Source of the DNA: Aquabacterium humicola
Lineage (GTDB): Bacteria; Pseudomonadota; Gammaproteobacteria; Burkholderiales; Burkholderiaceae_C
Reading direction: 5' to 3'
Length of the DNA: 64,000 nt
Assembly (NCBI RefSeq): GCF_030167915.1
Contig: NZ_JARGNB010000005.1
Span: 124,001 to 188,000, forward strand
Made by a program: the position numbers and the translations under genes. The notes below the pieces were generated by a model. That model did no database searches. It had not been told where the DNA came from and worked only from the letters and a program-made list of their open reading frames with translations. Shown here piece by piece: positions 6,505-20,264 of this stretch. Each line of letters opens with the position of its first letter. Within the stretch, counting starts at the first letter, position 1.

Positions 6505-8172
6505 TCAGGCCGCGGAGGCCCTTCGCTTGATCGCTGCGATGGAAATGCCTTCGTTCGCTTCGTAGCTGCCCTCGCCGTGCAGGCGCGGCGTGGTGGCGGA
6601 GCCGCCATGGTGCAGCGCGATGACCTTCCAGACGCTGTTGAAGACCGGGCTACCTGAACTGCCAGGATCGGTGGGCGTCCGGTAGTGCACCAACCGCTTG
6701 TCATCGTCGATGTCCAGCAGCAGGCTGTCGTGCAGCGACACCTGCAGACCGCTGCCCTGCGGATGGCCAACGACGAACGCTTTGGCCTTGCCCTGAAGCG
6801 TCGGCAGCGGCAAGCTGCACTCCAGGCTTGCATGGCTCGGGGCCAGATTGGCAAGACGGACGACCGAGACGTCGAGGTGATCGCCGTCGGCGCATCGATA
6901 CCCCAGCTCGGCCGGCTTCGACGAGAAGAGCAGGTTGCCGGCCACTTCATGGAACACCGGCGCCTTGGTGGCCAGCGATTCGACTTCGAAGCTGACCAGC
7001 GCGTCACCCGGGGCAATGGCGTTGGCGACGTCATTGCTGATGACATGCGCATTCGTCACGAACACGGGCGCCGGCCCCCAGGCCTCCGACAGGCAGTTGC
7101 CGGCGACCAGGAAACCCGTGCCCAGACGTTCACCGGAGCGATTGGAGACGCAGCCGATCGATGCGCACGACTGCACCATGCGCGTGAGCAGGCTCAGGCT
7201 GATGCCGCGTTCGCCGGAAAAATTCTTCTCCAGGTGCGCGGGGTCGGCATCGAGCTGGCGCGCCATGTCGCGCAACTGATCGCGCGACACGGTCATGCGC
7301 GATTGGGTACGCAGCAGGTGCGATGCGATGATCCCAGTGAGACGGCTTGCCAGGGCCGGACCGGGGCCGACGGCGCGGCCCTCCCAGATCTCGCGCAGCT
7401 GGCGGTCGTAGCTGTCGATCGCGAACGGTGTGGTGTCCGGGTGATGAAGAAAGCGGTACAGCCACAACTCCGCGTCCTCGGGCAGGTCGAGTGCCAAGGC
7501 CGCTTCGGACAACGTGGCTGCCATCCAGTAGTCACCGGGATTGCGCAACCACTGCGCCAGCAACTGTTGGCGCAGCTCATTGGCCAGGCTCGATGCGGTC
7601 GTCCCGTCGTCGGCAATCGATCCGAGGCCGTCACGCTCTTGCCGGCACAGCAGTGCCACGCTGTTGATGCCATGCCAATAGGGCCGGGCCGGATGCTGGC
7701 GGTAGGTGGTCAGGTAGCGCTTGATGCCCTCGCGCAGCCGTGCCGGCTCGCCGTCGGCCACGAACCGCTGCTTCTCGATGCGGCCGAGCAGGCCCTGGTG
7801 CTCGGCGGCCTCTTTCGGCGACGGCGCATCGGCCCCCTGCCCGAAGCGGGCGATGCTCCGATTCAACACCTGCTCCGCCGCGTCGAGCGCATTCAGCTCG
7901 ATCAGCGCCTGTGCCTGCAGTCGCGCGATCGTGGCATCCGGCGCTCGCAGAGCCTGCCACGCCTCGGTGATCGAGCGGCTGGCCTCGAAATGGCGCGCCG
8001 AGTTCAGTACCGTAGCCGCCTTCTGAACGCCTTCCCGGGTGACCGGACATCTGGCGTCGCGCAACTCGGAGGCAATCGACTGTGCGGCTTCGCCAAGCTC
8101 CCAGGGCTGTGCGTCGGGCAGTTTTCCGGTCAGGAGAATCCGGGCGCGTTCCTCAGGTGTCGCCGGCCGCAT
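6505..8172 (-). CDS. TPR (MAP3K TRAFs-binding-like) + trypsin-like serine protease
   Basis: A 555-residue protein with no signal peptide. Residues about 40-280 are helical repeats, including 'YWHGINSVALL' (166-176), the hallmark I associate with MAP3K TRAFs-binding TPR domains. Residues about 330-540 are a trypsin-like protease: His376 in TNAHVIS, Asp434 in DHLDVSVV, and Ser506 in DPGSSGSP, preceded by a GTGF strand. All three catalytic residues are present, so it should be active. It starts four bases after the stop of the alpha/beta hydrolase gene upstream, so the two are translationally linked. Cytoplasmic proteases fused to such repeats occur in bacterial conflict systems; a defence role is inferred from this and the neighbours. 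Confidence 0.8.
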   Translation of the reverse strand: MRPATPEERARILLTGKLPDAQPWELGEAAQSIASELRDARCPVTREGVQKAATVLNSARHFEASRSITEAWQALRAPDATIARLQAQALIELNALDAAEQVLNRSIARFGQGADAPSPKEAAEHQGLLGRIEKQRFVADGEPARLREGIKRYLTTYRQHPARPYWHGINSVALLCRQERDGLGSIADDGTTASSLANELRQQLLAQWLRNPGDYWMAATLSEAALALDLPEDAELWLYRFLHHPDTTPFAIDSYDRQLREIWEGRAVGPGPALASRLTGIIASHLLRTQSRMTVSRDQLRDMARQLDADPAHLEKNFSGERGISLSLLTRMVQSCASIGCVSNRSGERLGTGFLVAGNCLSEAWGPAPVFVTNAHVISNDVANAIAPGDALVSFEVESLATKAPVFHEVAGNLLFSSKPAELGYRCADGDHLDVSVVRLANLAPSHASLECSLPLPTLQGKAKAFVVGHPQGSGLQVSLHDSLLLDIDDDKRLVHYRTPTDPGSSGSPVFNSVWKVIALHHGGSATTPRLHGEGSYEANEGISIAAIKRRASAA

Positions 8173-8176
8173 CGCA

Positions 8177-9163
8177 TCAACCTTCTGTGGCCGCCCGCCG
8201 GAGTTCGCGACGAAGCTGCGTGCCGGCGAGGTAGTGCGTGATGGTGTGCCGCCACTTGCCCCAGTTCGACTCCTCGATGTCGACCACCCGCTTGCCGCTC
8301 ACTTCGGCATAGTCGTTGACGAACTTCGGATCCGCGCCGCACACCGGATCGAGCGGGTCGTAGACATTGATCCAGTGCCCCAGCTTCTCGGCCGGAAAAT
8401 CGACACTGTCCTGGCCCTGGGCCTTCAGTTCGTCCTGGACCTCCTGGACCCCGAGCGGCGAACCCAGCGTGAACAGCGTATCGACCGGCGGGCATTCCGC
8501 GCAATTGCGCAGCACGTCGTAGGCCAGCATCGTGCCCATGCTGTGCGAGACGACGATCACACGATCGGCCTGCTGCCGCGCCTGCGCGACCTGCGCCAGC
8601 ACGAGCGAGCGCAGGTGCTGGCGCACCTTCACGCGCTGGCCACCGGGGCTGTCGAACTCCTTGTCGAACAGGTAGTAGTAGGCCTCCATCGCAGCCTTCT
8701 TGATCACGGCCTGCTTGATCGGCTCGGGCAGCCAGCTGGCGATCTCGAGACCCGCCGCCGCGGCGCCCTCGTGCGTCGAAGGCGGCGCCGGCTGGAGCAC
8801 GGGCTGTGCGCTCAGCTTGGCCTCGAAGCCGGCCAGGAAAGCAGCTTCACGCGCGTTGGCCGGCACGGCGGCCGGCGCCGGCGCATCGGCACCACCGAGC
8901 ACCTCGGCCCGCACGACTTCGAGCCCCTCGAAGGACTCGTAAGCGGAGTAGTCCGTGTCGTACGCCTTGCCGTAGAAGACATCGGCCCAATACACGAAGT
9001 GATCGGTGATGCCCTCGGCCTCGAGCACCAGCCCATCGTTCGGCGGCTCAAACGCCGACGGCATCGGGTTGTCCCGCCCGAGCCAGTCGATCCAGATCTC
9101 GCGCAGTTTCTCGGGCGGCGGCTTCTTCGCCAGGCCGTGGATGAAAACGATGGCAGCGCTCAC
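8177..9163 (-). CDS. Alpha/beta hydrolase (lipase/PGAP1-like) of a putative conflict system
   Basis: A 328-residue protein starting at GTG 9163, which follows GGGAGGT at good spacing; the longer opening to 9304 lacks a ribosome site and would run into the divergent promoter region. 'AAIVFIHGLAKKPP' is the first strand and oxyanion loop. 'VIVVSHSMGTMLAYDVL' carries the nucleophile Ser in SHSMG. 'NVYDPLDPVCG' offers the Asp and 'HTITHYLAGT' the His. There is no signal peptide, so it acts inside the cell, perhaps on a lipid or ester. It is the first gene of the leftward unit and faces the TIR-like gene across 152 bp. Confidence 0.78.
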   Translation of the reverse strand: MSAAIVFIHGLAKKPPPEKLREIWIDWLGRDNPMPSAFEPPNDGLVLEAEGITDHFVYWADVFYGKAYDTDYSAYESFEGLEVVRAEVLGGADAPAPAAVPANAREAAFLAGFEAKLSAQPVLQPAPPSTHEGAAAAGLEIASWLPEPIKQAVIKKAAMEAYYYLFDKEFDSPGGQRVKVRQHLRSLVLAQVAQARQQADRVIVVSHSMGTMLAYDVLRNCAECPPVDTLFTLGSPLGVQEVQDELKAQGQDSVDFPAEKLGHWINVYDPLDPVCGADPKFVNDYAEVSGKRVVDIEESNWGKWRHTITHYLAGTQLRRELRRAATEG

Positions 9164-9315
9164 GAGACCTCCCGCATCGGGGCGACGGAAAGGCGACTTT
9201 GCCTCGCAGGACAAAGAGTGCGCAAGCTGCGCTGTCGTCAATTGTGAGGAACCGGACGAGAACCCAGGCCACGCATTCGGCCCGCGACTCCTATGCTTTC
9301 CCATCGGAGACGACC
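9164..9315. promoter_or_regulatory. Divergent control region of the putative conflict system
   Basis: This 152-bp gap separates the hydrolase start (GTG at 9163, leftward) from the TIR/SLOG gene start (ATG at 9316, rightward) and must hold both promoters. It is less GC-rich than most spacers here. I could not identify convincing -35/-10 pairs or a palindromic operator. Confidence 0.45.
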
Positions 9316-11349
9316 ATGCCCCTCTACTCCCTGTTCATCGTGCGTCCCTTCGGCATCAAGGGCGGCTTCGATTTCGACCTCGTCGAATCGGCCCTGATCC
9401 GTCCCGCACTGGCGAAGCTCGAAGCGCGCCACGGCATTCGCGTGACTGGCGGAACCACCGGGGAGATCGTCAAGCAGGGAAACATTCGCACGGACATGTT
9501 CCGCCAGCTCGTGGTCAGTGATCTCGTGATCGCCGACGTGTCCATCCACAACGCCAACGTGTTCTACGAGCTTGGCATCCGCCACGGCCTGCAACAGCGA
9601 CACACCGTGCTGCTGCGATCGGAAGTCGACGACAAGAACTCCTATCCCTTCGACCTGCAGAGCGACCGCTATTTCCTGTACGACCGCGAGAAGCTCGCGG
9701 ACGGCGTGGACCGGCTCGCCGAGACACTTCGGCTCAGCCTTGCCGACCCGGGCAAGGACAGTCCGGTCTTCCAGCAACTGCCCAAGCTCAGGCCGCACGC
9801 GCGCAGCGAACTGATACCGGCGCCGGCAGATTTCCAGGAGGAGATCGCGCGCGCAGTCAGCACGCGCGATGTCGGCAAGCTGCGTCTGATGGCGCAGGAG
9901 CTCGACGGCCTCGAGTGGCGAACCGAAGGCTTGCGCCTGGTGGGCAATGCGCAGTTCATGCTGAAGGCGAACCATGGTGCGCGGGTGACGTTCGAAGCCT
10001 TGCGCGAGGTCGACCCGAACGATCTGCTGGCGAACCAGCGCCTGGGAACGATCTACCAGCGCCTGTCGCGCACCGCACCTGAAACGGACCGGGCGGACCT
10101 GCTGACGCGTTCCGACCTGGCGGTGAAGCAGGCACTCGCGGCGGCCGGCAACGGTGTCGACCGAGCCGAGGCACAAGCGCTGCTCGGCAGCAACGCCAAG
10201 ACTCGCTGGATCGACGAATGCCGCGCTGCCGCGCCCGCCTCGCTCGCGCGGCAGGCCCTGCGCTCGGCCCACCTGCAGAATGCCCTCGATGCCTACCTCG
10301 GTGCGATGCGCCATCGGCTGGATCGCCACTACCCGGCCATCAATGTGCTCGCGTTGCTGAAGATCCAGGCCGCGCTGGCGGCCGCAGAACCCCAGGTCTG
10401 GCAGGCGCGCTTCGAGGGCAACGACGATGCCGCGCGCGCCTTGCAGCAGCGTACGCGCACCGCCGATCGCGTGGCCGCACTGCTCGAGCTGGCGCTCGAC
10501 CGCGACCCTGTGGTTGGCCGCCCGGCGGATCTGGATGACTGGGGCAAGAGCAGCATCGCCGAACTCGTCCTGCTGACACGGCCGGACGACGAAGAGCGTG
10601 TTCGCGCAGCCTACGTTGGCGCGCTCAGCTCGGCAGACCAGTTCACGGTCGAAGCCACGCGCCGGAATCTCGAAGTCTTCCAGCACCTGGAGTTGTTCGA
10701 GCCGGCGACGAGCGCTGCCCTGCAGGAAGTCGCGAGCCTGCACCCGGCGGTGGATCCGCCTCCGCCACAGCGTGTCGTGCTCTTCACCGGGCACATGGTC
10801 GACCGCCTCGGGCGCCCCCATCCCCGTTTCCCACGCACCGAACGCGCAGAGCAGATCGCGCAGCAGATGATCCGGAAGGCCTTGGAGGAAGAGTCGAATC
10901 TCGGCCCCATCTCGCTGGCGCTCGCCGGCGGTGCATGCGGTGCGGACATCCTGTTCCATGAAGCCGCCGCTGCAGCCGGCATCGACCACAAGGTGTGGCT
11001 GGCACTGCCCCCTGATCGTTTTCAGGTCACCTCGGTGCAGCATGGCGGACCTTCGTGGGTGGAGCGCTTCAGCCAACTGCGTGCGACAGCCGCGGCGCGC
11101 GTACTGCAAGATGCCGAGAGCATGCCGCTGTGGCTTGCCGAGCACGGGGGCTACGATGTGTGGCAGCGCAACAATCTCTGGATGATGTTCACCGCCCTCT
11201 CGCTTCAGGCCAGCCATCTCACGCTGATTGCACTGTTCAATCCCGTCCTCGATGCCGACGGTCCCGGCGGAACCCGTCATCTGCTCCAGGAAGCGCGGAA
11301 GCACCAGTTCAAGGTGGTCGAGCTCGACGCGCGAGAGCTGCTCGGCTAG
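9316..11349 (+). CDS. TIR/deoxyribosyltransferase-like + TPR + SLOG-like three-domain protein
   Basis: A 677-residue cytoplasmic protein; ATG 9316 follows GGAGA. Residues 1-140 form a Rossmann-like domain with 'SDLVIADVSIHNANVFYELGIRH' (68-90, here split for length: SDLVIADVS then NVFYELGIRH). This is the pattern of nucleoside deoxyribosyltransferase/TIR-like enzymes, and Glu85 matches their catalytic Glu. Residues about 190-440 are helical repeats with 'HYPAINVLALLKI', again TRAFs-binding-like. Residues about 515-677 resemble a SLOG/DprA-like nucleotide-binding fold ('LSLALAGGACGADILFHEAA'). Predicted role: sensing and/or cleaving a nucleotide signal such as NAD in a conflict system with the divergent protease and hydrolase. 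Its stop interlocks with that of the convergent deacetylase gene. Confidence 0.75.
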   Translation: MPLYSLFIVRPFGIKGGFDFDLVESALIRPALAKLEARHGIRVTGGTTGEIVKQGNIRTDMFRQLVVSDLVIADVSIHNANVFYELGIRHGLQQRHTVLLRSEVDDKNSYPFDLQSDRYFLYDREKLADGVDRLAETLRLSLADPGKDSPVFQQLPKLRPHARSELIPAPADFQEEIARAVSTRDVGKLRLMAQELDGLEWRTEGLRLVGNAQFMLKANHGARVTFEALREVDPNDLLANQRLGTIYQRLSRTAPETDRADLLTRSDLAVKQALAAAGNGVDRAEAQALLGSNAKTRWIDECRAAAPASLARQALRSAHLQNALDAYLGAMRHRLDRHYPAINVLALLKIQAALAAAEPQVWQARFEGNDDAARALQQRTRTADRVAALLELALDRDPVVGRPADLDDWGKSSIAELVLLTRPDDEERVRAAYVGALSSADQFTVEATRRNLEVFQHLELFEPATSAALQEVASLHPAVDPPPPQRVVLFTGHMVDRLGRPHPRFPRTERAEQIAQQMIRKALEEESNLGPISLALAGGACGADILFHEAAAAAGIDHKVWLALPPDRFQVTSVQHGGPSWVERFSQLRATAAARVLQDAESMPLWLAEHGGYDVWQRNNLWMMFTALSLQASHLTLIALFNPVLDADGPGGTRHLLQEARKHQFKVVELDARELLG

Positions 11350-12194
11350 CGCCGACGCACCCAACGCGCCACATCCCCGAAGGTCGCCACCCAGTAGCGC
11401 TGCGGATGCGCGGCCAGGTGCCGCAGCAGGCGCTGGTGCGCGTCGACCGGGATCGACAGGTAGTCGCCGCCGATGCCGTGCAGGATGATGCTGGCCAGTG
11501 CGCGGCCGTTCGAACCGGCCGCCGCGCGTTCGACGAAGCCGATCAGCGCATCCGCGTCGGCATTCACCGGCGCCCAGGAGCCGATCGCATGCAGGTCCTG
11601 CGCCAGCACGTCGGCGGTCACGCCACCCTCGCTGACCTTGATCGCGACGAACATCGGCTTCACCAGTGGCAGGAACGGCTCGCCGCCGGCCAGCACGTCG
11701 CCGCAGGGCGCGGTGAAGGTGCGTTCGGTGCGACCGTCGATCGCGTGCAGGAAGGCATTGGCCGTGGCGATCTCGTCGCGCACCGCGGCGGCCGTGGTGC
11801 GGTCGAGGTCGCGCGGCGGCGTCACCCAGTCACGGCCGGGGCCGGCCGTGCGCGAGCAGGGGTGGAAGACGGTGTGGTTGCCCAGCTCGTGGCCGGTCCG
11901 GGCGGCGGCGCGCCATTCCGGCAGGCGCTTCGCGACCGTCTCGCTGGCCAGCGTCAGGTAGAAGCTGGCCTTCAGGCCGAGCGCATCGAGCGCCGGCAGC
12001 GCATGGTTCAGCTGCGACGGCAGCGCATCGTCGTAGGACAGGCTGACGGCGATGCGGGCACCGCCGGGCCAGGCGAACGGCGTGTCGGATGGCCGCTGCG
12101 ATTGCGCGTCAGCACGAGGCGCGCCACAGAAGGCCACCAGCGCCAGCAACACCACCCGCACGAACGCGAGGCGCTGCCGCGCGCGGCGGCTCAC
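11346..12194 (-). CDS. Exported polysaccharide deacetylase (NodB-like)
   Basis: A 282-residue protein. The start is GTG 12194, whose GTGA overlaps the TGA stop of the halogenase-like gene upstream, so it is coupled to it. Residues 1-30 are a signal peptide ending at ADAQ. The NodB fold shows the metal-binding Asp in 'VSLSYDDALP' and the His pair in 'HELGNHTVFHPCS' (HxxxNHTxxH-type), with 'TAPCGDVLAGG' further on. It would remove acetyl or similar groups from a polysaccharide in the periplasm. It ends the six-gene leftward run that starts with the TonB receptor, fitting glucan processing. Confidence 0.8.
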   Translation of the reverse strand: MSRRARQRLAFVRVVLLALVAFCGAPRADAQSQRPSDTPFAWPGGARIAVSLSYDDALPSQLNHALPALDALGLKASFYLTLASETVAKRLPEWRAAARTGHELGNHTVFHPCSRTAGPGRDWVTPPRDLDRTTAAAVRDEIATANAFLHAIDGRTERTFTAPCGDVLAGGEPFLPLVKPMFVAIKVSEGGVTADVLAQDLHAIGSWAPVNADADALIGFVERAAAGSNGRALASIILHGIGGDYLSIPVDAHQRLLRHLAAHPQRYWVATFGDVARWVRRR

Positions 12195-13765
12195 CGCTGC
12201 ATCGCCGCCGCCGGCACGCTGCCGGCCGCGCCGACCCCCATCCGCGCAGCGGCGGCGGCGCAGTAGTCGCGCACGTAGGCCTCGTGCTTCGGCAGCTGCA
12301 TCACCGTGCGCTGCACGCCGGCGCGGATGCTCTCGAGGAAGTGCCCCAGCTCCTCGTCGCCCATCAGGTCGGCGGTGGCATTGCCGCGGCGCGGCACGAT
12401 GCCCTGCCCCAGCATCACCTGGATCCACGAGTTCTCGGCGAACAGCTCGTTCGGTGCGCGGAACACGCGGCCGCTTTCCTGGAACAGCTCGATGCGCTGG
12501 CGCAGCGACGCGGGGATGTCCATCTCGCGGCAGGCGCGCCAGAACGCGGTGTCGTCGCGCTGCGTCACGTGGTAATGCAGCACGATGAAATCGCGGATGT
12601 GCTCCATCTCCCAGCGCGTCTGGCGGTTGTATTCGTCGACGTCGGCGTCGCAGATGCCCTCGGACGGGAACAGCTGCATCAGCTTGATCGCGCCGCGCTG
12701 GATCAGGTGGATGCTGGTCGATTCCAGCGGCTCGATGAAGCCGCCGGCCAGGCCGATGGCGACCACGTTGCCGCGCCAGGCTTGCGCACGCTGGCCGGGC
12801 CGGAACTTCAGCACCCGCGGCGGCGCGAGGACCTCGCCCTCGATGCGATCGAGCAGCAGGCGCTTCGCGTCTTCGTCCGCGAGGTGCCTGCTCGAATACA
12901 CCATGCCGTTGCCGACGCGGTGCTGCAGCGGAATGCGCCATTGCCAGCCGGCTTCGCGGGCGATCGAGCGGGTGTAGGGAATGGCCTCGCTGACAGACGC
13001 TGTCTGCGCCGCGACCGCCGAATCGCAGGGCAGCCAGTGCGACCAGTCCTCGTAGGGCACGCCCATCGTCGCGCCGATCAGGAGCGAGCGGAAGCCGGTG
13101 CAATCGATGAACAGGTCGCCCTCGATCTCGCGGCCGCCGTCGAGCCTGAGCGCCTTGACATGTCCTCGATGGTGGCCACCGTCTTCATGCGTCAGCACGT
13201 CGACGATCCTGCCTTCCACCCGCTGCACGCCCAGCGGCTCGCTGAAGCCGCGCAGGAAACGCGCATAGCGTGTCGCGTCGAGGTGGAACGCGTAGTTCAT
13301 GCCGGCGCGCGGCAGGTGCGCGAAGCGGCCTTCGCGCGCGGCGAGGTGCTCGGCGCAATAGTCGCCGTATTCGGGCGAGGCCAGGCCGCGCTCGCGGCCC
13401 TTCAACCAGAAGTGCTGGAAGCCGGCGCTCCAGTGGTCGCGGCCGGTCAGGCCGAAGGAATGGATGTACTGGTGGTCCTTCGCGCGCCAATGCTCGAAGC
13501 CGATGCCCAGCTTGAAGGTGGCCAGGGTCGCGGCCATGAACTCCTGCTCGTTCAGCTCGAGCAGGTCGTGGTAGACCAGCAGCGTCGGGATCGTCGCCTC
13601 GCCGACGCCGACGGTGCCGATCTCGTCGGACTCGACCAGCGTGATCTGCAGCCGCTTGCCCAGCGTCTTGCCCAGCAGCGCGGCGACCATCCAGCCGGCG
13701 GTGCCGCCGCCGGCGATGACCACGCGGCGGGTCGGCGTGCGGGTGCTCGAAGGCGTCGGGTTCAT
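12191..13765 (-). CDS. Flavin-dependent tryptophan-halogenase-family protein (copy 1)
   Basis: A 524-residue protein; ATG 13765 follows GGAGA. The FAD-binding GGGTAG lies at 19-24. Lys85 in 'TFKLGIGFEHW' matches the halogenase catalytic Lys, and 'GWQWRIPL' at 273-280 is the WxWxIP motif that separates halogenases from monooxygenases. All hallmarks are thus present, so it could oxidise chloride or bromide, but the context is a TonB/SapC sugar locus, where this family is often found without a known product. A partner flavin reductase is not seen nearby. Substrate is unknown. Second-last gene of the operon. Confidence 0.82.
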   Translation of the reverse strand: MNPTPSSTRTPTRRVVIAGGGTAGWMVAALLGKTLGKRLQITLVESDEIGTVGVGEATIPTLLVYHDLLELNEQEFMAATLATFKLGIGFEHWRAKDHQYIHSFGLTGRDHWSAGFQHFWLKGRERGLASPEYGDYCAEHLAAREGRFAHLPRAGMNYAFHLDATRYARFLRGFSEPLGVQRVEGRIVDVLTHEDGGHHRGHVKALRLDGGREIEGDLFIDCTGFRSLLIGATMGVPYEDWSHWLPCDSAVAAQTASVSEAIPYTRSIAREAGWQWRIPLQHRVGNGMVYSSRHLADEDAKRLLLDRIEGEVLAPPRVLKFRPGQRAQAWRGNVVAIGLAGGFIEPLESTSIHLIQRGAIKLMQLFPSEGICDADVDEYNRQTRWEMEHIRDFIVLHYHVTQRDDTAFWRACREMDIPASLRQRIELFQESGRVFRAPNELFAENSWIQVMLGQGIVPRRGNATADLMGDEELGHFLESIRAGVQRTVMQLPKHEAYVRDYCAAAAARMGVGAAGSVPAAAMQR

Positions 13766-13794
13766 CGGCGGGTCTCCGTGTCGTTCGGGTCGGG

Positions 13795-14820
13795 TCAGCG
13801 ATTGAGCTTCTGCAGCAGCTGGGCGCGCAGCCGGCGCGACGCGTCGGCATCCAGCGGCGCCAGCACGCCGCGCGCGTGCTCGGGGATGTGGGCCGCGGTC
13901 ATGTCGTCGGCGCCGAACACGTAGTGCTCGAACAGCGCGCGCCACGCGTCGCGCTGCTCGGGCGGCAGCTCGCGCACGCACATCATCGTGTGCAGCAGCG
14001 CGGCCACCGGCGCATCCATGTGGGCCGGCGAGCGCCGCCACCAGTAGTTCACCAGGACGTTGAACGGCGCGGTGGCCTCGACGTGGTGCCACCACAGGCT
14101 GGGGATCAGGATCGCGTCGCCCGGGGCCAGCTCGGCGCCGCGGGCACGGCGCGCGGCCTCGGCATAACGCGGGAAACGCTCGAGGTCGGGGGCGTTGATG
14201 TCGACGAGACTGACCGGCTGGCCGGCGGGTGTGAAGTCGAGCGGGCCGACGTAGAGGTTGGCCACCTCGGCCGGCTCGAACAGCGTGAAGCGGCGCCGGC
14301 CGGCGACCACGCAGGCCAGATTGGCCGGCAGGTCCTGGTGCGCGGCGATGCGCGTGCGGTTGCCCAGCCACACGCTCATCAGCGGCTGCAGGATCGGGCC
14401 GAAGCCCAGGTCGTTGTGCGCGCGGAAATCCGGCAGGCAGGTGTCGACGGTCGTCGAGCCGACGTAGATCGCCGGCGCGTCCGCATCGCCATGAACCTGC
14501 GCCAGCGCGTCCAGCACCGCACCGAAGGGCTGCCGCTCGGCGCGGAAGTTGAAGTCGGTGAAGGCCTCGTCGTAGAAGAAGCGGCCGCGGATCTCGGGCG
14601 GGCCGATCCAGGCATTGACGGTGGCGTCGCGCCAGCTGCGGCGCAGCAGCTCGCTGATCGCGGTATCGCCTTCCAGGGCCGCCTGCACGGCGGGCCAGGG
14701 GCGCACGAGGCCACGGATCACCAGCGGCTCGGTGGCGTCCAGCAGCGCAACCGGCAGCGCGGCCGGATCGATGCCGGACACTTCGCGCACCGGCGTCGGC
14801 ATCGGCAGGTGGACGCTCAT
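13795..14820 (-). CDS. Cupin-like (JmjC-type, cupin_8) protein
   Basis: A 341-residue protein of the JmjC/FIH-like cupin group. The Fe-binding HxD is visible in 'IAAHQDLPANLACVVAGRRRF', and the distal His in 'PSLWWHHVEATAPFNVLVNYWW'. This suggests a 2-oxoglutarate/Fe(II) oxygenase fold, though activity is unproven for this subgroup. It lies between SapC and halogenase copy 1 with a 29-base gap to the latter. This order (TonB receptor, halogenase, SapC, cupin, halogenase) recurs in sugar-uptake loci of several Proteobacteria by my recollection. Confidence 0.78.
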   Translation of the reverse strand: MSVHLPMPTPVREVSGIDPAALPVALLDATEPLVIRGLVRPWPAVQAALEGDTAISELLRRSWRDATVNAWIGPPEIRGRFFYDEAFTDFNFRAERQPFGAVLDALAQVHGDADAPAIYVGSTTVDTCLPDFRAHNDLGFGPILQPLMSVWLGNRTRIAAHQDLPANLACVVAGRRRFTLFEPAEVANLYVGPLDFTPAGQPVSLVDINAPDLERFPRYAEAARRARGAELAPGDAILIPSLWWHHVEATAPFNVLVNYWWRRSPAHMDAPVAALLHTMMCVRELPPEQRDAWRALFEHYVFGADDMTAAHIPEHARGVLAPLDADASRRLRAQLLQKLNR

Positions 14821-14828
14821 GTCGGATG

Positions 14829-15554
14829 TCAGCCGGCGCGGCGGTTTCGGCGGTTGCGGCGCTCGACCAGCGCGCGCAGCTGCGACAGCGAGGCGATCTG
14901 CATGTGGATCGGCATCAGGTGGCCGTCGCGGCTCAGGCGCTCCAGCGTCGCGCCGTCCAGGGCCGCGAGGCGCTCCTCGTCGATCGTGTAGAAGCCGGCG
15001 AGCCGGTGCGTCGAGCCGTCGTCGAGCTCGACGTCGAAGACGAAGGATTCCAGCAGCTTCAGCTGCAACAGCGTTTCGACGAAGGCCGGCGTCGCGCCGA
15101 TGCCGTCGTTGAGCGTGCGCAGCAGCGAGGTGATGCGCTCGAGGTAGTCGCTGGAGCCGCCATGGGTGCGGAACAGCGACTCGCCGGCGGCACCGTCCAC
15201 CAGCCGCGGACTGTCCATGTCGACGTGCAGCATCAGGCTCTCGCGGCCCTCGTGCACGCTGCGGCCGATCAGGAAGGGCTCGCGCTCGATGGCCATCGGC
15301 AGGTACGCGGCATCCCAGCCGGTCGCGGACAGGAACAGGTTCTCGCCGGCCTCGAAGCCGAACAGCGCCAGCGGCTGGAAGCCGGTGCCGTCCGCGGTCT
15401 TCTGGAACACGATCGGGTAATGCGCCTGCACGCTGCGGAACTCGGCAGGAAAGGTGATCGCCGACATCACCGCGTCGCCGAGCTCGGGCGTGCGTTCGGT
15501 GCGCACGCGCAGGTCGCGGTGGTCGATGTTGTTCAGCAGCACGGGGCGGGTCAT
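14829..15554 (-). CDS. SapC family protein
   Basis: A 241-residue protein of the SapC family, named after a Caulobacter/Campylobacter S-layer-associated gene. Typical stretches are 'HRDLRVRT', 'ITFPAEFRSVQAHYPIVFQ' and 'FDVELDDGSTHRLAGFYTIDEERL'. The ATG at 15554 is preferred to an upstream TTG at 15569, which lacks a ribosome site. No signal peptide is seen. The biochemical role is unknown; family members sit beside halogenase-like and TonB-receptor genes, as here. The next gene starts eight bases downstream, so it is operon-linked. Confidence 0.8.
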   Translation of the reverse strand: MTRPVLLNNIDHRDLRVRTERTPELGDAVMSAITFPAEFRSVQAHYPIVFQKTADGTGFQPLALFGFEAGENLFLSATGWDAAYLPMAIEREPFLIGRSVHEGRESLMLHVDMDSPRLVDGAAGESLFRTHGGSSDYLERITSLLRTLNDGIGATPAFVETLLQLKLLESFVFDVELDDGSTHRLAGFYTIDEERLAALDGATLERLSRDGHLMPIHMQIASLSQLRALVERRNRRNRRAG

Positions 15555-15578
15555 CGGGTTTGCTCGCAAGGAGAAGGA

Positions 15579-17126
15579 TCAGACGGCGGACTGGCCGTGG
15601 CGGCGGATGTGCTCGATCAACGCGCGGTGGTCGGGCAGTCCGGCGAGCATACGGCGCGTCAGGTCGGCAGCGGCACGGAAATGGCCGTCCGCCGTGCGAT
15701 CGGGCCGCGGCAGCGTGTCGGGGCGAAAGCCCATGCCGTAGAGCACGTACTGCCAGCTGGCCGACGGGAACACCTCGTCGTTGCGCGTCAGGTCCACCCG
15801 CGATGGGCTGCGGTGCCGCCAGAGCTGCAGTTGCTCCTGAAGGCGCGCGGGCATCGACGCCTCGCGGCGGTTGTCGCGCCAGAAGTCGCTGTCGTCGCGC
15901 CTCGACAGCGCGTAGTGCAGCTTCAGGAACTCGATGATGCGGGCCCAGCGGTAGGTGAACGCCTCGTTGAAGCGGCGCGCGACGATGTCCACCGCCGCGC
16001 GGTCGCGCGGGAAGTCGTCGGCCAGCATGGCCGCCGAGAGTTCGATCAGCGCGAGGGCCGAGGCTTCCAGCGGTTCGATGAAGCCGGCCGACAGACCGAT
16101 CGCGACGCAGTTGCGGTGCCAGAAGTGTTCACGGTGACCGGGGTCGAACGAGATCTTGCGCGGGGCGCCGATGTCGCGCGGGCCACCGCTCGCCGCGATG
16201 TAGGCGCGCAGCGCCGCTTCGGCGGACGCGTCATCGGTGTGCGCGCTCGAATAGACGTGGCCGATGCCGCGCCGGCTCGACAGCCCGATGTCCCAGATCC
16301 AGCCCGCGGCCTGGGCGGTCGAGATGGTCTGCGATGCAATCGGCGCATCGTCACGTGCATACGGCACCTGCAGCGCCAACGCGGTGTCGCAGAACAGCAC
16401 GTGGCGCTGCGAGACGAAAGGCACGCCGAAGTGCCGGCCGAGCAGCAATGACGGCAGCCCCGTGCAGTCGACGAAGAGATCGCCGGCCACGAGGCCATGG
16501 TCGCGTGTCTTCAGCGCGGCGATGTCGCCGTTGTCGCGCGACTCGATCGCCACCATCTCGTCGAGCACATGCTGCACGCCCAGGCGCTCGACGCAGTGCG
16601 TGCGCAGCCACGGGCCGAACTTGCCGGCATCGAAGTGGTAGGCGTAGTTCGCGATCGACGCGTACTCGGGTGTCTGGGCCTGCTTCGGCGCACGATGCTC
16701 GGCACACAGATGCGGCTGCGGGCCCACGAGGTCGGCGAAGGGCACGTGCGCGGGGCCGTGCAGCCAGCCGGCGACGAGGTCGGCGTCGCCGTAGCCCTCG
16801 GGCAGCGTGAACGGGTGGTAGTAGCGATCGCCGTCGGCCAGCGGATCGCGGCCGCCGATCCAGCGGTCGAAGCGCGACCCCTGCTTGAAGCTGGCGTCGC
16901 ATTCGCGCACCAGCCCCGCTTCGCTGACGCCGATGGTGCGCAGCGTGTCGCGCATCGTCGGCCAGGTGCCTTCGCCGACGCCGATCGGCGCGCGGTCGGG
17001 CGATTCGAGCAGCGTGACCTGCAGGCCGCCCGGCTCGCCCGCCGGGTGGCGCGCGGCGAGCACACCCGCCACGAGCCAGCCGGCGGACCCACCGCCGACG
17101 ATCACCACCTGGCGGACCTGCTGCAT
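15579..17126 (-). CDS. Flavin-dependent tryptophan-halogenase-family protein (copy 2)
   Basis: A 515-residue protein with GGGSAG at 11-16 for FAD, Lys81 in 'ASFKQGSRFDRW' at the catalytic Lys position, and 'GWIWDIGL' at 275-282 as the WxWxI motif. It is clearly diverged from copy 1, so the pair is not a recent duplication. It lies directly after the TonB receptor gene (36-base gap) and before SapC. Function in the glucan locus is unknown; it could modify a ligand, a receptor or an aromatic compound. Confidence 0.8.
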   Translation of the reverse strand: MQQVRQVVIVGGGSAGWLVAGVLAARHPAGEPGGLQVTLLESPDRAPIGVGEGTWPTMRDTLRTIGVSEAGLVRECDASFKQGSRFDRWIGGRDPLADGDRYYHPFTLPEGYGDADLVAGWLHGPAHVPFADLVGPQPHLCAEHRAPKQAQTPEYASIANYAYHFDAGKFGPWLRTHCVERLGVQHVLDEMVAIESRDNGDIAALKTRDHGLVAGDLFVDCTGLPSLLLGRHFGVPFVSQRHVLFCDTALALQVPYARDDAPIASQTISTAQAAGWIWDIGLSSRRGIGHVYSSAHTDDASAEAALRAYIAASGGPRDIGAPRKISFDPGHREHFWHRNCVAIGLSAGFIEPLEASALALIELSAAMLADDFPRDRAAVDIVARRFNEAFTYRWARIIEFLKLHYALSRRDDSDFWRDNRREASMPARLQEQLQLWRHRSPSRVDLTRNDEVFPSASWQYVLYGMGFRPDTLPRPDRTADGHFRAAADLTRRMLAGLPDHRALIEHIRRHGQSAV

Positions 17127-17162
17127 CGAACCCCCTCGCCTACTGCGCCGACGCCAGCGGCG

Positions 17163-20100
17163 TCAGAACTGCCAGCGCGCTCCCAGCATGTAGCGGCGGC
17201 CGGTCTGCGTGATGTAGACCAGTTGCTCCTTCGCGCGGCCGTGCAGGCGCTGCACGCCGTCGTTCAGATTGATCACCTCCGCCTGCACGGTGAGATTGTC
17301 GGTGAGCTTGTAGCCCACCGTCACGTCCCACTGGCCATAGGGCTCGGCGTACACCGGGTTGGGCAGGCCGCTGCCGTCGACGCGCGCCACCAGGAACTTG
17401 TCGCGCCAGTTGTAGGCCGCCCGCACCGAGAGCTTCTTGTCCTCGTAGAAGCCGACGAAGTTGGCCGAGTCCGACAGGCCCTCCAGCGCGAACTGCTCGC
17501 CCAGGCTCGCGTTGTTGTACTTCAGGTCCGACGACACCTTGGTGTAGTTGGCCGAGACGCCGAAGCCGGTATTGCCGAAGACGTGCTGGACGTTGAACTC
17601 CAGGCCCTTCAGCTTCGCGGACTTCTGGTTCGCCGGCACGGTGATCGCAAAGGTGGCGATCGGATCGCCCGGCTGGCCGAGGATGGTGCCGGCGGCCTTG
17701 TTGACGCCGTTGCGGCCGTCGTAGTTGTTGAAGATCCAGGTGCGGATGCAGCCGAGATCGGTGGCCGAGCAGCCGCCGCGCGACACCGCCTCGTTGAACA
17801 GTGCGCCTCCCGCAGGCGTCGCCAGGTTGAACGGCGACTGGGTGATCGTCTGCACGCCGACGTAGTTGTCGATGGCCTTGTGGAACGCGCCCAGCGACAG
17901 GTAGCTCGACTTCGCGTAGTACCACTCGAAGGACAGGTCGAAGTTCTTCGATTCCAGCGGCTTCAGCCCAGGGTTGCCCTGCGCGCCGGTGCCGCCGTTG
18001 ACCCGCGCCAGCTGGTTCAGCGTCTGCCCGCCCTGGATGTCGCCCCAGCCCGGCCGGCCGATCGATTCGCCGTAGCTCGCGCGCAGCTTCATGTTGTCGG
18101 TCAGGTCGACGTCGAAGTCCAGGCTCGGCAGCACGTACTCGTACTTGCCGGTCAGCGTCGTGAAGCCCGGCGCGCCGAACTGCACCGAGAACTCGTTGTT
18201 GCCGGTCCACAGGATGCCGGTGGCCGTGGGCACCAGCGCGGTCGACGTCACCTTGGTCTTCTCGTAGCGCACGCCGGCGGCCACGTGCATCGGCAGGCCG
18301 AGCTCGAAGTCGCGGTCCCACTGCACGTGCGCGCTGGTGGAGTTCTCGCGCACGCGGCGGTCGGTGGTGAACTTGTCCGAGGCGAGGTACAGCGACGGAT
18401 CGCCGCCGACCTGCGCGGCGATCGCGCGCACCTTCTCGAAGTCCCAGACGAAGAACTGGTTGAAGAGGTTCGAGTCCCCGCTGCCGGGCATCTGGCCGAA
18501 GTACTGGCGGATCGTGTCGGCACGCCACAGGTCGTCCGGGTAGTCGGACGCGCTGGTCGCGCCGCCCCAGGTGTCGCGCTGCACGTTCGAGAAGGCCGAA
18601 CGGTTGTCGACCTTGGTCGCGCCGACGCCGAAGTTCAGCTGCGACACGTCGTCGATCTTCCACTTGCCCGAGACCTGCGCCTGTTCGACGCCGGCCTTCA
18701 TGTAGCTGTTGCGGAAGGACGAGCCGGTGACCAGCATCTTCGACGCGTCGATGCCGGGACCGGCGATGCTCAGCACCGGGAAGTCCTTCGTGAAGTCGAC
18801 GGTCGTGGTGCCGCGAGTGTGGCTGGCCGCGCCGAGCACCGAGTTCGTGCCGTAGGGGCTGTTGGCACCGGACGTGGCGGTGGACTTGTGCGCGTCGAAC
18901 TCGAAGCTCAGCTTGTCCGAGGCCTTCCACGCCAGGTTGAAGCCGGTGGAGTTGTTCTCGTTCTTCGTCGCGTAGTCGGCGCCAGCCATCGCGATGTCGC
19001 TGTTCGCCGGCACGATGATTTCCGAGTAGGTCTTCGGCGCGGCCACCGGACCGTTGGTCCACGACGTGACGGTCGGGCCGAAGTTGAACCACGCCGACAG
19101 CTCGTTGCGCCGCGTATGGACCTTGTTCTCGGAATAGGTGTGGTCGAGCGTGGCGCGCAGGCCCTTGAACGGCTCGAACTGCAGCACCAGCTGGCCGTTG
19201 GTGCGCTTGCGCTCGACGCCGTTGAAGCTGTAGAGCAGGTTCTGCGGCACCGAGTAGATGTCGTTCGGGCCGGGCCGGTTGGTGATGTTCTCGCTGCCGG
19301 GCGTGCCGGGCTGGGGAATCGTGCCCCAGTTGTTCTCGTCGCCCTTGAACGCGCGCCAGCCGTTGGGCACCGCGGCCTGGTTGTAGCCCAGGTGGCGTTC
19401 CTGGTAGCTGCCGCTGATCGCGATGCCGAAGCGGCCGTCGCCGAAGGTATTGCTGAAGATGCCGGAGATCTCGGGCGTCACCGAGTCGCCCTGCAGGCGA
19501 TCCGGCAGGCGGCCGGCGGAGTCGTCCTTGACGCCCTTGATGCCGATGCTGGTGCGCAGGCCCGGGTTCTCCAGCGGGCGCGCGGTCTTGATGTTGATCG
19601 TCGCGCCGATGCCGCCGGTGGGCGTGCTGGCGCGGCTGGTCTTGTAGACCTCGATCGCGGCGACCGATTCGGACGCCAGGTTCGCGAAGTCGAACGCGCG
19701 GGAGTTCGACGCGCTGGTCTCCTCGATGCGCGAGGCCGGCATCTGCCGGCCGTTCAGCAGCACGAGGTTGAAGTCCGGGCCGACGCCGCGCACCGTCACG
19801 CGCGAGCCTTCGCCGATCGAGCGGTCGATCGACACGCCGGTGATGCGCTGCATCGATTCGGCGAGGTTGGTGTCCGGGAACTTGCCGATGTCCTCGGCCA
19901 CGATGCCGTCGATGACCCCCTGCGCGTTGCGCTTGAGGTCCATCGCCGATTCCAGGCTGCGGCGGATGCCGGTGACGACCACCGTCATCGGGGCCTGGCC
20001 TGCCGCGGCGGCCTGGCCGGCCGGTGCGGTGGCGGGCGTGGTGGCCTGCGCGACGACGGTGGGGGCCGGCGCTGCGGCCGAGGGCGCCGACGCCGCCGCT

Positions 20101-20264
20101 GCGGGCGCAGAAGCGGAGGCCGCCGCCGCGGGCGGCGTGGCAGCGGTCTGCGCCAGCGCGGAACCGACCCCGCCGCACGCCAGCCCGCAGGCCGCCGCCA
20201 GCGCCGAGATGCGAAGGACCGGGCGCCGGCCGTGACCCGAGTGGACCGAGGGCAAGGAATTCAT
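17163..20264 (-). CDS. TonB-dependent outer-membrane receptor (glucan locus)
   Basis: A 1033-residue receptor. A signal peptide spans about 1-39, followed by an Ala/Pro-rich linker. The plug domain runs about 85-230 ('VVVTGIRRSLESAMDLKRNAQG', 'IGKFPDTNLAESMQRITGVSI', 'VRGVGPDFNLVLLNGR', 'IEVYKTSRAS...GGIGATINI'), then a 22-strand barrel ending in 'GARWQF' with the expected C-terminal Phe. This is the large Caulobacter/Xanthomonas-type receptor class used for oligosaccharides. ATG 20264 follows GGAGAC. It heads a six-gene operon and is controlled from a region with two LacI-type operators shared with the GH16 gene. Ligand inferred: beta-glucan oligosaccharides. Confidence 0.9.
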   Translation of the reverse strand: MNSLPSVHSGHGRRPVLRISALAAACGLACGGVGSALAQTAATPPAAAASASAPAAAASAPSAAAPAPTVVAQATTPATAPAGQAAAAGQAPMTVVVTGIRRSLESAMDLKRNAQGVIDGIVAEDIGKFPDTNLAESMQRITGVSIDRSIGEGSRVTVRGVGPDFNLVLLNGRQMPASRIEETSASNSRAFDFANLASESVAAIEVYKTSRASTPTGGIGATINIKTARPLENPGLRTSIGIKGVKDDSAGRLPDRLQGDSVTPEISGIFSNTFGDGRFGIAISGSYQERHLGYNQAAVPNGWRAFKGDENNWGTIPQPGTPGSENITNRPGPNDIYSVPQNLLYSFNGVERKRTNGQLVLQFEPFKGLRATLDHTYSENKVHTRRNELSAWFNFGPTVTSWTNGPVAAPKTYSEIIVPANSDIAMAGADYATKNENNSTGFNLAWKASDKLSFEFDAHKSTATSGANSPYGTNSVLGAASHTRGTTTVDFTKDFPVLSIAGPGIDASKMLVTGSSFRNSYMKAGVEQAQVSGKWKIDDVSQLNFGVGATKVDNRSAFSNVQRDTWGGATSASDYPDDLWRADTIRQYFGQMPGSGDSNLFNQFFVWDFEKVRAIAAQVGGDPSLYLASDKFTTDRRVRENSTSAHVQWDRDFELGLPMHVAAGVRYEKTKVTSTALVPTATGILWTGNNEFSVQFGAPGFTTLTGKYEYVLPSLDFDVDLTDNMKLRASYGESIGRPGWGDIQGGQTLNQLARVNGGTGAQGNPGLKPLESKNFDLSFEWYYAKSSYLSLGAFHKAIDNYVGVQTITQSPFNLATPAGGALFNEAVSRGGCSATDLGCIRTWIFNNYDGRNGVNKAAGTILGQPGDPIATFAITVPANQKSAKLKGLEFNVQHVFGNTGFGVSANYTKVSSDLKYNNASLGEQFALEGLSDSANFVGFYEDKKLSVRAAYNWRDKFLVARVDGSGLPNPVYAEPYGQWDVTVGYKLTDNLTVQAEVINLNDGVQRLHGRAKEQLVYITQTGRRYMLGARWQF

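What the first reader, a model, noticed from the sequence alone, without database searches (positions are those of the whole stretch)
6505..11349. Candidate undescribed conflict system: TPR-protease, alpha/beta hydrolase and divergent TIR-like/SLOG protein
Three cytoplasmic proteins with predicted cleaving activities (protease, esterase/lipase, nucleoside-type hydrolase) share a 152-bp divergent promoter region. Two of them carry the same type of TPR domain. They fill the space between an acetyltransferase and a deacetylase gene with no room left over. Line 9601-9660 has 35 of 60 G+C against 47 of 60 at 50941-51000. The parts match modules known in NTP-dependent and SLOG/TIR conflict systems, but I do not know this exact trio as a characterised system.
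Basis: partly seen in the sequence, partly recalled or inferred. Interest (0 to 1): 0.85.

Follow-up and report, generated by a model that had tools for sequence, protein, structure and literature searches.

The report
Predicted alarm enzyme with protease–hydrolase pair
Three neighbouring genes in a Burkholderiaceae-type bacterium look like a compact self-destruct or anti-virus circuit, in which a nucleotide-processing alarm protein may switch on a protease that may in turn switch on a lipase-like enzyme; none of this has been tested in the laboratory.

Summary
Window 6505-11349 encodes P1 (TPR-S domain + trypsin-like protease), P2 (alpha/beta hydrolase, directly upstream of P1, 4-bp gap) and, divergently, P3 (TIR/DRHyd-like domain + TPR-S + SLOG-like domain). 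Catalytic residues are conserved in homologues. The GC dip is real but mild.

The grouping is not accidental. P2 directly precedes P1 in 10 of the 11 close P2 loci found (window included), among them rhizobial plasmids; nine remoter P2 relatives lack P1. P3, P1 and P2 recur together in L116, and P3 with P2 in L121, whose contig ends before P1's place. P3's commonest neighbour, however, is a CapV-like patatin phospholipase (43 of 80 P3 loci, 37 within 600 bp). In a 58-sequence tree the P1/P2-associated P3s are scattered among patatin-associated ones, so the protease-hydrolase module looks acquired more than once. P1 also recurs with a GH108 muramidase (once fused) and with TIR genes.

Best reading: a TPR-S-type conflict system. 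P3 makes a NAD- or nucleotide-derived signal, the TPR-S protease senses it and activates the hydrolase. Messenger, proteolysis and phage defence are inferred, not shown. TPR-S is a named Pfam family whose founding paper I could not read: a new variant of a known kind.

The parts
6505..8172 (-). P1: TPR-S + trypsin-like serine protease, 555 aa
   Evidence: Pfam TPR-S and Trypsin_2 over cut-off; His376, Asp434, Ser506 invariant in an alignment of 11
7648..7989 (-). TPR-S domain of P1 (residues 62-175)
   Evidence: PF20308, E 3e-13; own-genome search 4.6e-14
6613..7122 (-). Trypsin-like domain of P1 (residues 351-520)
   Evidence: PF13365, E 6.6e-17
8177..9163 (-). P2: alpha/beta hydrolase, first gene of the P2-P1 pair
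   Evidence: weak generic hydrolase hits; Ser208 (SHSMG) and His306 invariant in an alignment of 8
9164..9315 (.). 152-bp divergent intergenic region between P2 and P3
   Evidence: sequence; 62.5% GC; no consensus sigma-70 promoter
9316..11349 (+). P3: TIR/DRHyd-like + TPR-S + SLOG-like protein, 677 aa
   Evidence: TPR-S over cut-off; AlphaFold2 model pLDDT 91.9, pTM 0.88, alpha/beta domains at both ends of a helical repeat
9316..9750 (+). N-terminal TIR/nucleoside-deoxyribosyltransferase-like domain; conserved NxNVFYELG motif with Glu85
   Evidence: PADLOC TIR effector model 3.4e-6; N79, N81, E85, G87 invariant in 58; whole-protein Foldseek lists a viral nucleoside deoxyribosyltransferase, TMt 0.61, E 0.022
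9976..10359 (+). TPR-S domain of P3
   Evidence: PF20308
10768..11346 (+). C-terminal SLOG-like (YspA/DprA-like) domain with DGPGGT motif
   Evidence: whole-protein Foldseek lists DUF2493 and DprA-like viral proteins, TMt 0.70-0.71, E 0.036 and 0.0036; weak PF10686; alignment with a standalone homologue

Best explanation
The three genes form one inducible conflict (abortive-infection or programmed-damage) system of the TPR-S kind. P3 is the alarm enzyme: its TIR/DRHyd-like domain, with or without help from the SLOG domain, converts NAD+ or another nucleotide into a signal. P1 receives the signal through its TPR-S domain and its trypsin-like domain becomes active. P1 then cleaves its operon partner P2, an alpha/beta hydrolase, turning it from a restrained form into an active esterase/lipase that damages membranes. 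P2 takes the place of the patatin phospholipase found beside many P3 homologues. Shown here: domain content, conserved catalytic residues, adjacency of P2-P1, recurrence of the trio, exchange of P3's partner. Inferred: messenger identity, TPR-S as receiver, protease-to-hydrolase order, membrane target, phage trigger.
For: TPR-S in both P1 and P3. P2 directly upstream of P1 on the same strand, -4 to 12 bp apart in the loci read: window, L116, L169, L170, L171, L172, L173, L175 (in L175 P1 is annotated as two genes, TPR part and protease). Sinorhizobium K101 and M103 show the same by match coordinates only. L116 carries P3, P1, P2 and a GH108 muramidase. L121 carries P3, GH108 and P2 up to the contig end. 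L085, whose P3 is 72% identical, has P1, GH108 and a TIR-nSTAND1-WD40 gene. L170 has a TIR gene beside P1; L175 has two TIR genes and a standalone SLOG homologous to P3's end. Among 80 P3 loci, 43 have a CapV-like patatin, 37 within 600 bp; the one tested (L082) matches the PADLOC phospholipase effector at 6e-48. L123 fuses LCAT-like hydrolase, CHAT protease and TPR-S upstream of a P3-like gene without SLOG. Precedents read as passages: NAD-derived N7-cADPR activating a caspase-like protease in type IV Thoeris (PMC12847820); a trypsin-like protease activating an upstream-encoded proenzyme (PMC12799240).
Against: No ligand, cleavage or phage data exist. Of 14 P1 loci found here (window plus 13), 8 (L050, L051, L165, L168, L169, L171, L172, L173) show no P3, TIR or standalone SLOG hit in the fetched stretch, so P1 often lacks a visible generator nearby. 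One close P2 (L174) has no P1 but other proteases instead. Nine remoter P2 relatives (six of them inside larger proteins) have no TPR-S trypsin in the fetched stretch. Only 3 of 80 P3 loci hold P1 and only L116 and L121 clearly hold P2 (in L122 only about 100 residues of a hydrolase match). The P2 model is poor (pLDDT 54.7), so no gating segment can be shown. P3's N-domain gave no Pfam TIR or deoxyribosyltransferase hit at E 0.1. Nothing shows that P2's substrate is a lipid. TPR-S itself is common: 31 of 60 related genomes match, 19 over cut-off.
Confidence: 0.5

Rival explanations
1. Same system, but TPR-S is a protein-protein dock, not a small-molecule receptor: P3 and P1 assemble through their TPR-S domains and P1 is activated by crowding, as adaptors do in the animal ASK1 kinase complex.
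For: The profile of P1 homologues matches solved ASK1 (MAP3K5) structures 5ulm (E 6.8e-6) and 8qgy (2.3e-5) over the TPR region; MAP3K_TRAF_bd is over cut-off in the P1 homologue of L116 and in the P3-like protein of L083.
Against: In most P1 loci no P3-type TPR-S protein is in the fetched stretch; 4 of 14 have TIR genes, typical signal makers.
Confidence: 0.22
2. P2-P1 is a self-contained module and P3 is an independent neighbour; the two units only happen to be divergent here.
For: P2-P1 occurs without a P3 hit on Agrobacterium and Rhizobium plasmids and in L169; P3 is more often with patatin (43 of 80).
Against: P1 or P2 lies in 4 of 80 P3 loci (L085, L116, L121, L139), which are scattered on the P3 tree. 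With P1 in 7 of 398 genomes (own included) and 1.19 Mb of P3 loci, about 0.005 P1 finds would be expected if genomes average 4-5 Mb (my estimate), against 3 seen.
Confidence: 0.15
3. P3 is the killer: its TIR/DRHyd domain depletes NAD+, and P1 and P2 regulate it, for example by cleaving P3 free.
For: The N-domain matches a TIR effector model and the Glu-containing motif is invariant in 58.
Against: P3 homologues sit in loci with lipase effectors in 43 of 80 cases, which suggests that P3 is upstream of an effector.
Confidence: 0.08
4. Ordinary metabolic or cell-envelope turnover genes.
For: Flanked by acetyltransferase and polysaccharide deacetylase genes; codon usage is normal.
Against: Patchy distribution (near-full-length P3 in 7 of 250 genomes of the family), relatives on plasmids, company of TIR, STAND, CHAT, caspase and patatin genes in related loci.
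Confidence: 0.05

Closest known systems
TPR-S (PF20308) systems, Burroughs & Aravind 2020 J Bacteriol (recalled; paper not held; cited for bacterial origins of the ASK signalosome in a passage of PMC8195603)
   Same: TPR-S in two components; a TIR/DRHyd/SLOG-class nucleotide protein; a coupled effector domain
   Different: I could not check whether the P3 / hydrolase / TPR-S-trypsin trio is drawn there; no experiment is known to me
Type IV Thoeris (TIR signal activates caspase-like protease; passages of PMC12847820)
   Same: TIR-like signal enzyme plus a protease as presumed receiver
   Different: protease is trypsin-like with TPR-S; an alpha/beta hydrolase is added; signal enzyme is fused to TPR-S and SLOG
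Nuclease-protease pairs of Hachiman/AVAST (passages of PMC12799240)
   Same: a hydrolytic enzyme encoded directly upstream of a trypsin-like protease that is fused to another domain; pair acquired by unrelated systems
   Different: upstream enzyme is an alpha/beta hydrolase, not an MBL-fold nuclease; proteolytic activation not shown here
CBASS CapV-type patatin effectors
   Same: the commonest neighbour of P3 homologues is such a patatin
   Different: the window locus has no patatin; the three window proteins gave no CD-NTase hit in PADLOC
VMAP/MoxR ternary systems (passages of PMC7159879)
   Same: trypsin or caspase peptidase, with an alpha/beta hydrolase beside caspase versions
   Different: no vWA, MoxR or VMAP hit among the nine proteins scanned around the locus

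Membership tests
TPR-S systems (PF20308) | TPR-S domain above the curated cut-off | tested here: met
   P1 50.7 bits, P3 40.1 bits, cut-off 27.6
TPR-S systems (PF20308) | TIR/DRHyd/SLOG-class nucleotide domain in the system | tested here: met
   PADLOC TIR 3.4e-6; model and fold matches; no Pfam TIR/NDRT hit and only a sub-threshold SLOG hit
TPR-S systems (PF20308) | TPR-S recognises a NAD-derived signal | not testable with these tools
   prediction recalled from the founding paper; no assay
Thoeris | ThsA-type effector (SIR2-SLOG, TM-macro or caspase-like) | tested here: not met
   no such domain or PADLOC Thoeris hit in the three proteins
CBASS | CD-NTase cyclase | tested here: not met
   no CD-NTase hit in the three proteins
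MBL nuclease-protease pairs | MBL-fold nuclease upstream of the protease | tested here: not met
   P2 is an alpha/beta hydrolase
MBL nuclease-protease pairs | proteolytic activation of the upstream enzyme | not testable with these tools
   needs an assay; P2 model pLDDT only 54.7
VMAP ternary systems | vWA, MoxR and VMAP components | tested here: not met
   absent from the nine proteins scanned between 4444 and 14820; wider window not exhaustively scanned
Trypsin-like serine protease | His-Asp-Ser triad | tested here: met
   His376, Asp434, Ser506 invariant in 11 of 11
Alpha/beta hydrolase | nucleophile-elbow Ser and catalytic His | tested here: met
   Ser208, His306 invariant in 8 of 8; acid residue not pinned down; no Pfam model over cut-off

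The most novel reading that the evidence does not exclude
A NAD- or nucleotide-signal alarm enzyme (DRHyd-TPR-S-SLOG), most often wired to a patatin phospholipase, has repeatedly been rewired to a protease cascade in which a TPR-S trypsin proteolytically switches on zymogens encoded beside it: an alpha/beta-hydrolase lipase, a GH108 phage-endolysin-like muramidase, or both. This would be a bacterial, complement- or coagulation-like proteolytic cascade aimed at the cell's own envelope.
Probability: 0.3. Interest if true: 0.78.

Novelty: new variant of a known kind. Interest (0 to 1): 0.52.

Why it matters
It would link three themes so far seen apart: NAD-derived alarm signals, a TPR scaffold related to that of the animal ASK1 kinase, and protease-activated effectors. 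I found no paper that defines a ligand of TPR-S. The window trio, with conserved catalytic residues and natural partner swaps (patatin, trypsin-hydrolase, muramidase), is a compact set in which to test what TPR-S senses and whether bacteria use protease-lipase or protease-lysozyme cascades for suicide.

Tried and rejected
Foreign-island reading from GC: weakened, because codon usage is normal and other parts of the window are similarly low. Empty-site test: not possible, because the flanking GNAT and deacetylase genes were found in none of the 20 relatives searched besides the own genome at E 1e-20. Viral contigs: the scans with P1 and P2 alignments confirmed no relative. P2 structure: too poor to use; no fold search was made with it. 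NCBIfam: no hit for the three proteins. P2 profile against solved structures: no hit at E 0.1. GH108 in the own genome: none found, but the control genomes did not ring either, so this shows nothing. Fold search of P3 against the PDB: dominated by other TPR proteins. Literature: the listings showed no paper on TPR-S proteins or on this trio; the library lacks most subscription papers, including the key one.
Full report
WHAT IS THERE. Window 6505-11349 holds three genes. P2 (8177-9163, minus) and P1 (6505-8172, minus) form a tight pair with a 4-bp gap, P2 first. P3 (9316-11349, plus) is divergent from P2 across 152 bp. P1 is a TPR-S domain (PF20308, E 3e-13) followed by Trypsin_2 (E 6.6e-17). 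P2 matches only generic alpha/beta-hydrolase models below cut-off. P3 has a TIR-like N-terminus (PADLOC TIR effector model 3.4e-6), a TPR-S domain (E 6e-10) and a C-terminus weakly matching the YspA SLOG model (E 0.038). NCBIfam has no hit for any of the three at E 0.01. The host genome is 7.4 Mb. It is a Burkholderiaceae-type bacterium: a contig of a same-genus genome (L044) is identical to a record titled Burkholderiaceae bacterium (L155). The genome has four TPR-S matches: P1, P3, a P3 paralogue (L005) and a TPR-S-patatin (L006).

CATALYTIC COMPETENCE. In an alignment of 11 P1 sequences His376, Asp434 and Ser506 are invariant; that these are the triad follows from the trypsin fold. In 8 P2 sequences Ser208 of the S/A-H-S-M/L-G-T motif and His306 are invariant. 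In 58 P3 sequences N79, N81, Y84, E85 and G87 of the NxNVFYELG motif are invariant; reading Glu85 as the catalytic glutamate of the TIR/deoxyribosyltransferase class is inference. AlphaFold2 models P3 well (pLDDT 91.9, pTM 0.88): alpha/beta domains at both ends of a long helical repeat. Foldseek against viral models lists, among many TPR and other proteins, a nucleoside deoxyribosyltransferase (TMt 0.61, E 0.022) and DUF2493 and DprA-like SLOG proteins (TMt 0.70-0.71, E 0.036 and 0.0036). I assign these to the N- and C-domains by inference, since the search was made with the whole protein. The PDB search was dominated by other TPR proteins. The P2 model is poor (54.7) and is not used.

THE P2-P1 PAIR IS A REAL UNIT. 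P2 lies directly upstream of P1 in the window, L116, L169, L170, and on plasmids of Rhizobium etli (L171), Agrobacterium fabrum (L172), A. tumefaciens (L173) and Sinorhizobium C101 (L175), with gaps of -4 to 12 bp. In L175 the TPR part and the protease are annotated as two genes. Two further Sinorhizobium plasmids (K101, M103) show the pair by match coordinates only. I call P2 close if it is a stand-alone gene at least 33% identical to the window's over nearly its whole length. Of 11 such loci (window included), 10 have P1. The exception is S. meliloti L174, where P2 sits with a NucA-trypsin gene, a CHAT gene and an S8 protease. L121 has P2 cut by the contig end and is not counted. Remoter P2 relatives were seen in nine other genomes: G119, G209, G217, G251, G268 and G286 inside larger proteins, G415 as a 274-aa gene, G333 and G134 as fragments. 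None of the nine has a TPR-S trypsin in the stretch fetched (5-16 kb); one (G134, L074) has a trypsin-like gene without detected TPR-S part about 2.3 kb away. So the pairing belongs to the close P2 group, not to all P2-like hydrolases.

P3 AND ITS PARTNERS. By tblastn at E 1e-6, 43 of 80 loci carry a CapV-like patatin gene, 37 of them within 600 bp of P3; 13 carry a TIR match, 3 P1, 3 GH108 and 3 P2 (the P2 match in L122 is only about 100 residues of a hydrolase). Fourteen of the 80 loci have less than 1.5 kb on at least one side, so these counts are lower bounds. The one patatin tested (L082) matches the PADLOC phospholipase effector at 6e-48 and Pfam Patatin at 4e-26. In L083 a P3-like protein without SLOG is followed by a TPR-S-patatin fusion; the window's own genome has such a fusion without a P3 gene beside it (L006).

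THE TRIO RECURS. L116 carries P3, then convergent P1, P2 and a GH108 muramidase. L121 carries P3, GH108 and P2 up to the contig end. L085 (Variovorax; P3 72% identical) carries GH108, P1 and a TIR-nSTAND1-WD40 gene, with P1 5.8 kb from P3. L139 carries P3, a TIR match and a P1-like gene 6 kb away. P1 was found in 7 of 398 phylum genomes (own included) at E 1e-12, several by the trypsin part only, and the 80 loci total 1.19 Mb. About 0.005 P1 finds would be expected at 4-5 Mb per genome (my estimate); 3 were seen. In a FastTree of 58 P3 sequences (57 of the 80 loci plus the window) the P1/P2-associated ones (window with L085, L116, L121, L139) fall in separate places among patatin-associated ones. 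The window-plus-L085 pair has support 1.0 and lies inside a clade of 8 with support 1.0 in which 5 have patatin. This suggests several exchanges between patatin and the protease module. Several deeper nodes have moderate support (0.48-0.77), and labels for loci with short flanks are incomplete.

OTHER COMPANIONS. Among 14 P1 loci met in this work (window plus 13; not a random sample), GH108 is near or fused in 6 (L050, L051, L085, L116, L165 fused, L175). TIR matches occur in 4 of 14 (L085, L139, L170, L175), P3 in 4 (window, L085, L116, L139). L175 also has a standalone homologue of P3's SLOG domain. Standalone SLOG relatives in L079 and L081 lie beside caspase genes. L123 fuses LCAT-like hydrolase, CHAT protease and TPR-S upstream of a P3-like gene without SLOG. 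Against a strict system, 8 of 14 P1 loci show no P3, TIR or SLOG hit in the stretch fetched.

DISTRIBUTION (own genome included in all counts of this paragraph except the relatives). In 250 genomes of the family, P3 matched in 25 at E 1e-5, but near full length in only 7; P1 in 4 at E 1e-8 (2 near full length); P2 in 8 at E 1e-5. In the phylum samples P3 matched 7 of 398 at E 1e-15, P1 7 of 398 and P2 5 of 339 at E 1e-15. TPR-S as a domain is common: 31 of 60 genomes match (own included), 19 over cut-off, and it rings in 5 of 14 control genomes. P3 relatives at 43-53% identity lie in Acidobacteria, Bradyrhizobium, Betaproteobacteria and Deltaproteobacteria, among others. This patchiness fits horizontal transfer. 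The flanking genes are in none of 20 relatives, so an empty site could not be examined.

HOW IT MAY WORK. A shared TPR-S domain links P3 to P1 and conserved adjacency links P1 to P2. P3's commonest partner is a phospholipase, so the most economical reading is signal (P3), then protease (P1), then hydrolase (P2), ending in membrane damage. NAD-derived signals are known to activate a caspase-like protease in type IV Thoeris (passages of PMC12847820). A trypsin-like protease is known to activate a proenzyme encoded directly upstream in Hachiman and AVAST (passages of PMC12799240). Kaur et al. noted alpha/beta hydrolases beside caspases in VMAP conflict systems (passages of PMC7159879). The TIR-DrHyd-SLOG class is reviewed as NAD-processing or nucleotide-sensing (passages of PMC9503650). 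The alternative that TPR-S is a docking scaffold is serious: the P1 profile hits ASK1 structures over the TPR region.

NOVELTY. TPR-S is a named family; as I recall, Burroughs & Aravind 2020 predicted it to sense NAD-derived signals and linked it to ASK1. That paper is not held; a passage of PMC8195603 cites it for bacterial origins of ASK signalosome components. I cannot say whether this trio appears in it. The listings showed no paper on this trio. What may be new is the repeated exchange of P3's patatin partner for a hydrolase/TPR-S-trypsin module and the recurring GH108 muramidase beside that protease.

Noticed in passing
L006:8061-10301 (own genome, C41): A TPR-S-patatin phospholipase fusion (Pfam TPR-S and Patatin) among metabolic and transport genes, with no alarm gene seen beside it; possibly a second receiver for P3's signal.
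   Followed up: partly
L005:7203-13012 (own genome, C1): A paralogue of P3 in one long open frame with a ParA/CbiA-type ATPase region, overlapped by a TIR gene, with a weakly deoxyribosyltransferase-like gene upstream.
   Followed up: partly
L165:6569-9037: GH108 muramidase, TPR-S-like region and trypsin-like protease in one 822-aa open frame, with three small unknown genes downstream.
   Followed up: partly
L123:4338-9356: LCAT-like hydrolase, CHAT protease and TPR-S in one protein directly upstream of a P3-like gene without SLOG; a caspase-type counterpart of the window trio.
   Followed up: partly
L079:2957-4854 and L081:5512-8164: Standalone homologues of P3's SLOG domain beside caspase (Peptidase_C14) genes.
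   Followed up: partly
L174:2539-14154: On a Sinorhizobium meliloti plasmid the P2 hydrolase sits with a NucA-trypsin gene, a PAS-domain gene, a CHAT protease and an S8 protease instead of P1.
   Followed up: partly
L171:1-9499: On a Rhizobium etli plasmid the P2-P1 pair follows a gene annotated as patatin-related and two more genes, one annotated as a cytochrome-c domain protein.
   Followed up: no
window 12191-20264: Two tryptophan-halogenase-like flavoproteins, a cupin-like protein and a TonB-dependent receptor close together, apparently a nutrient-uptake cluster next to the system.
   Followed up: no
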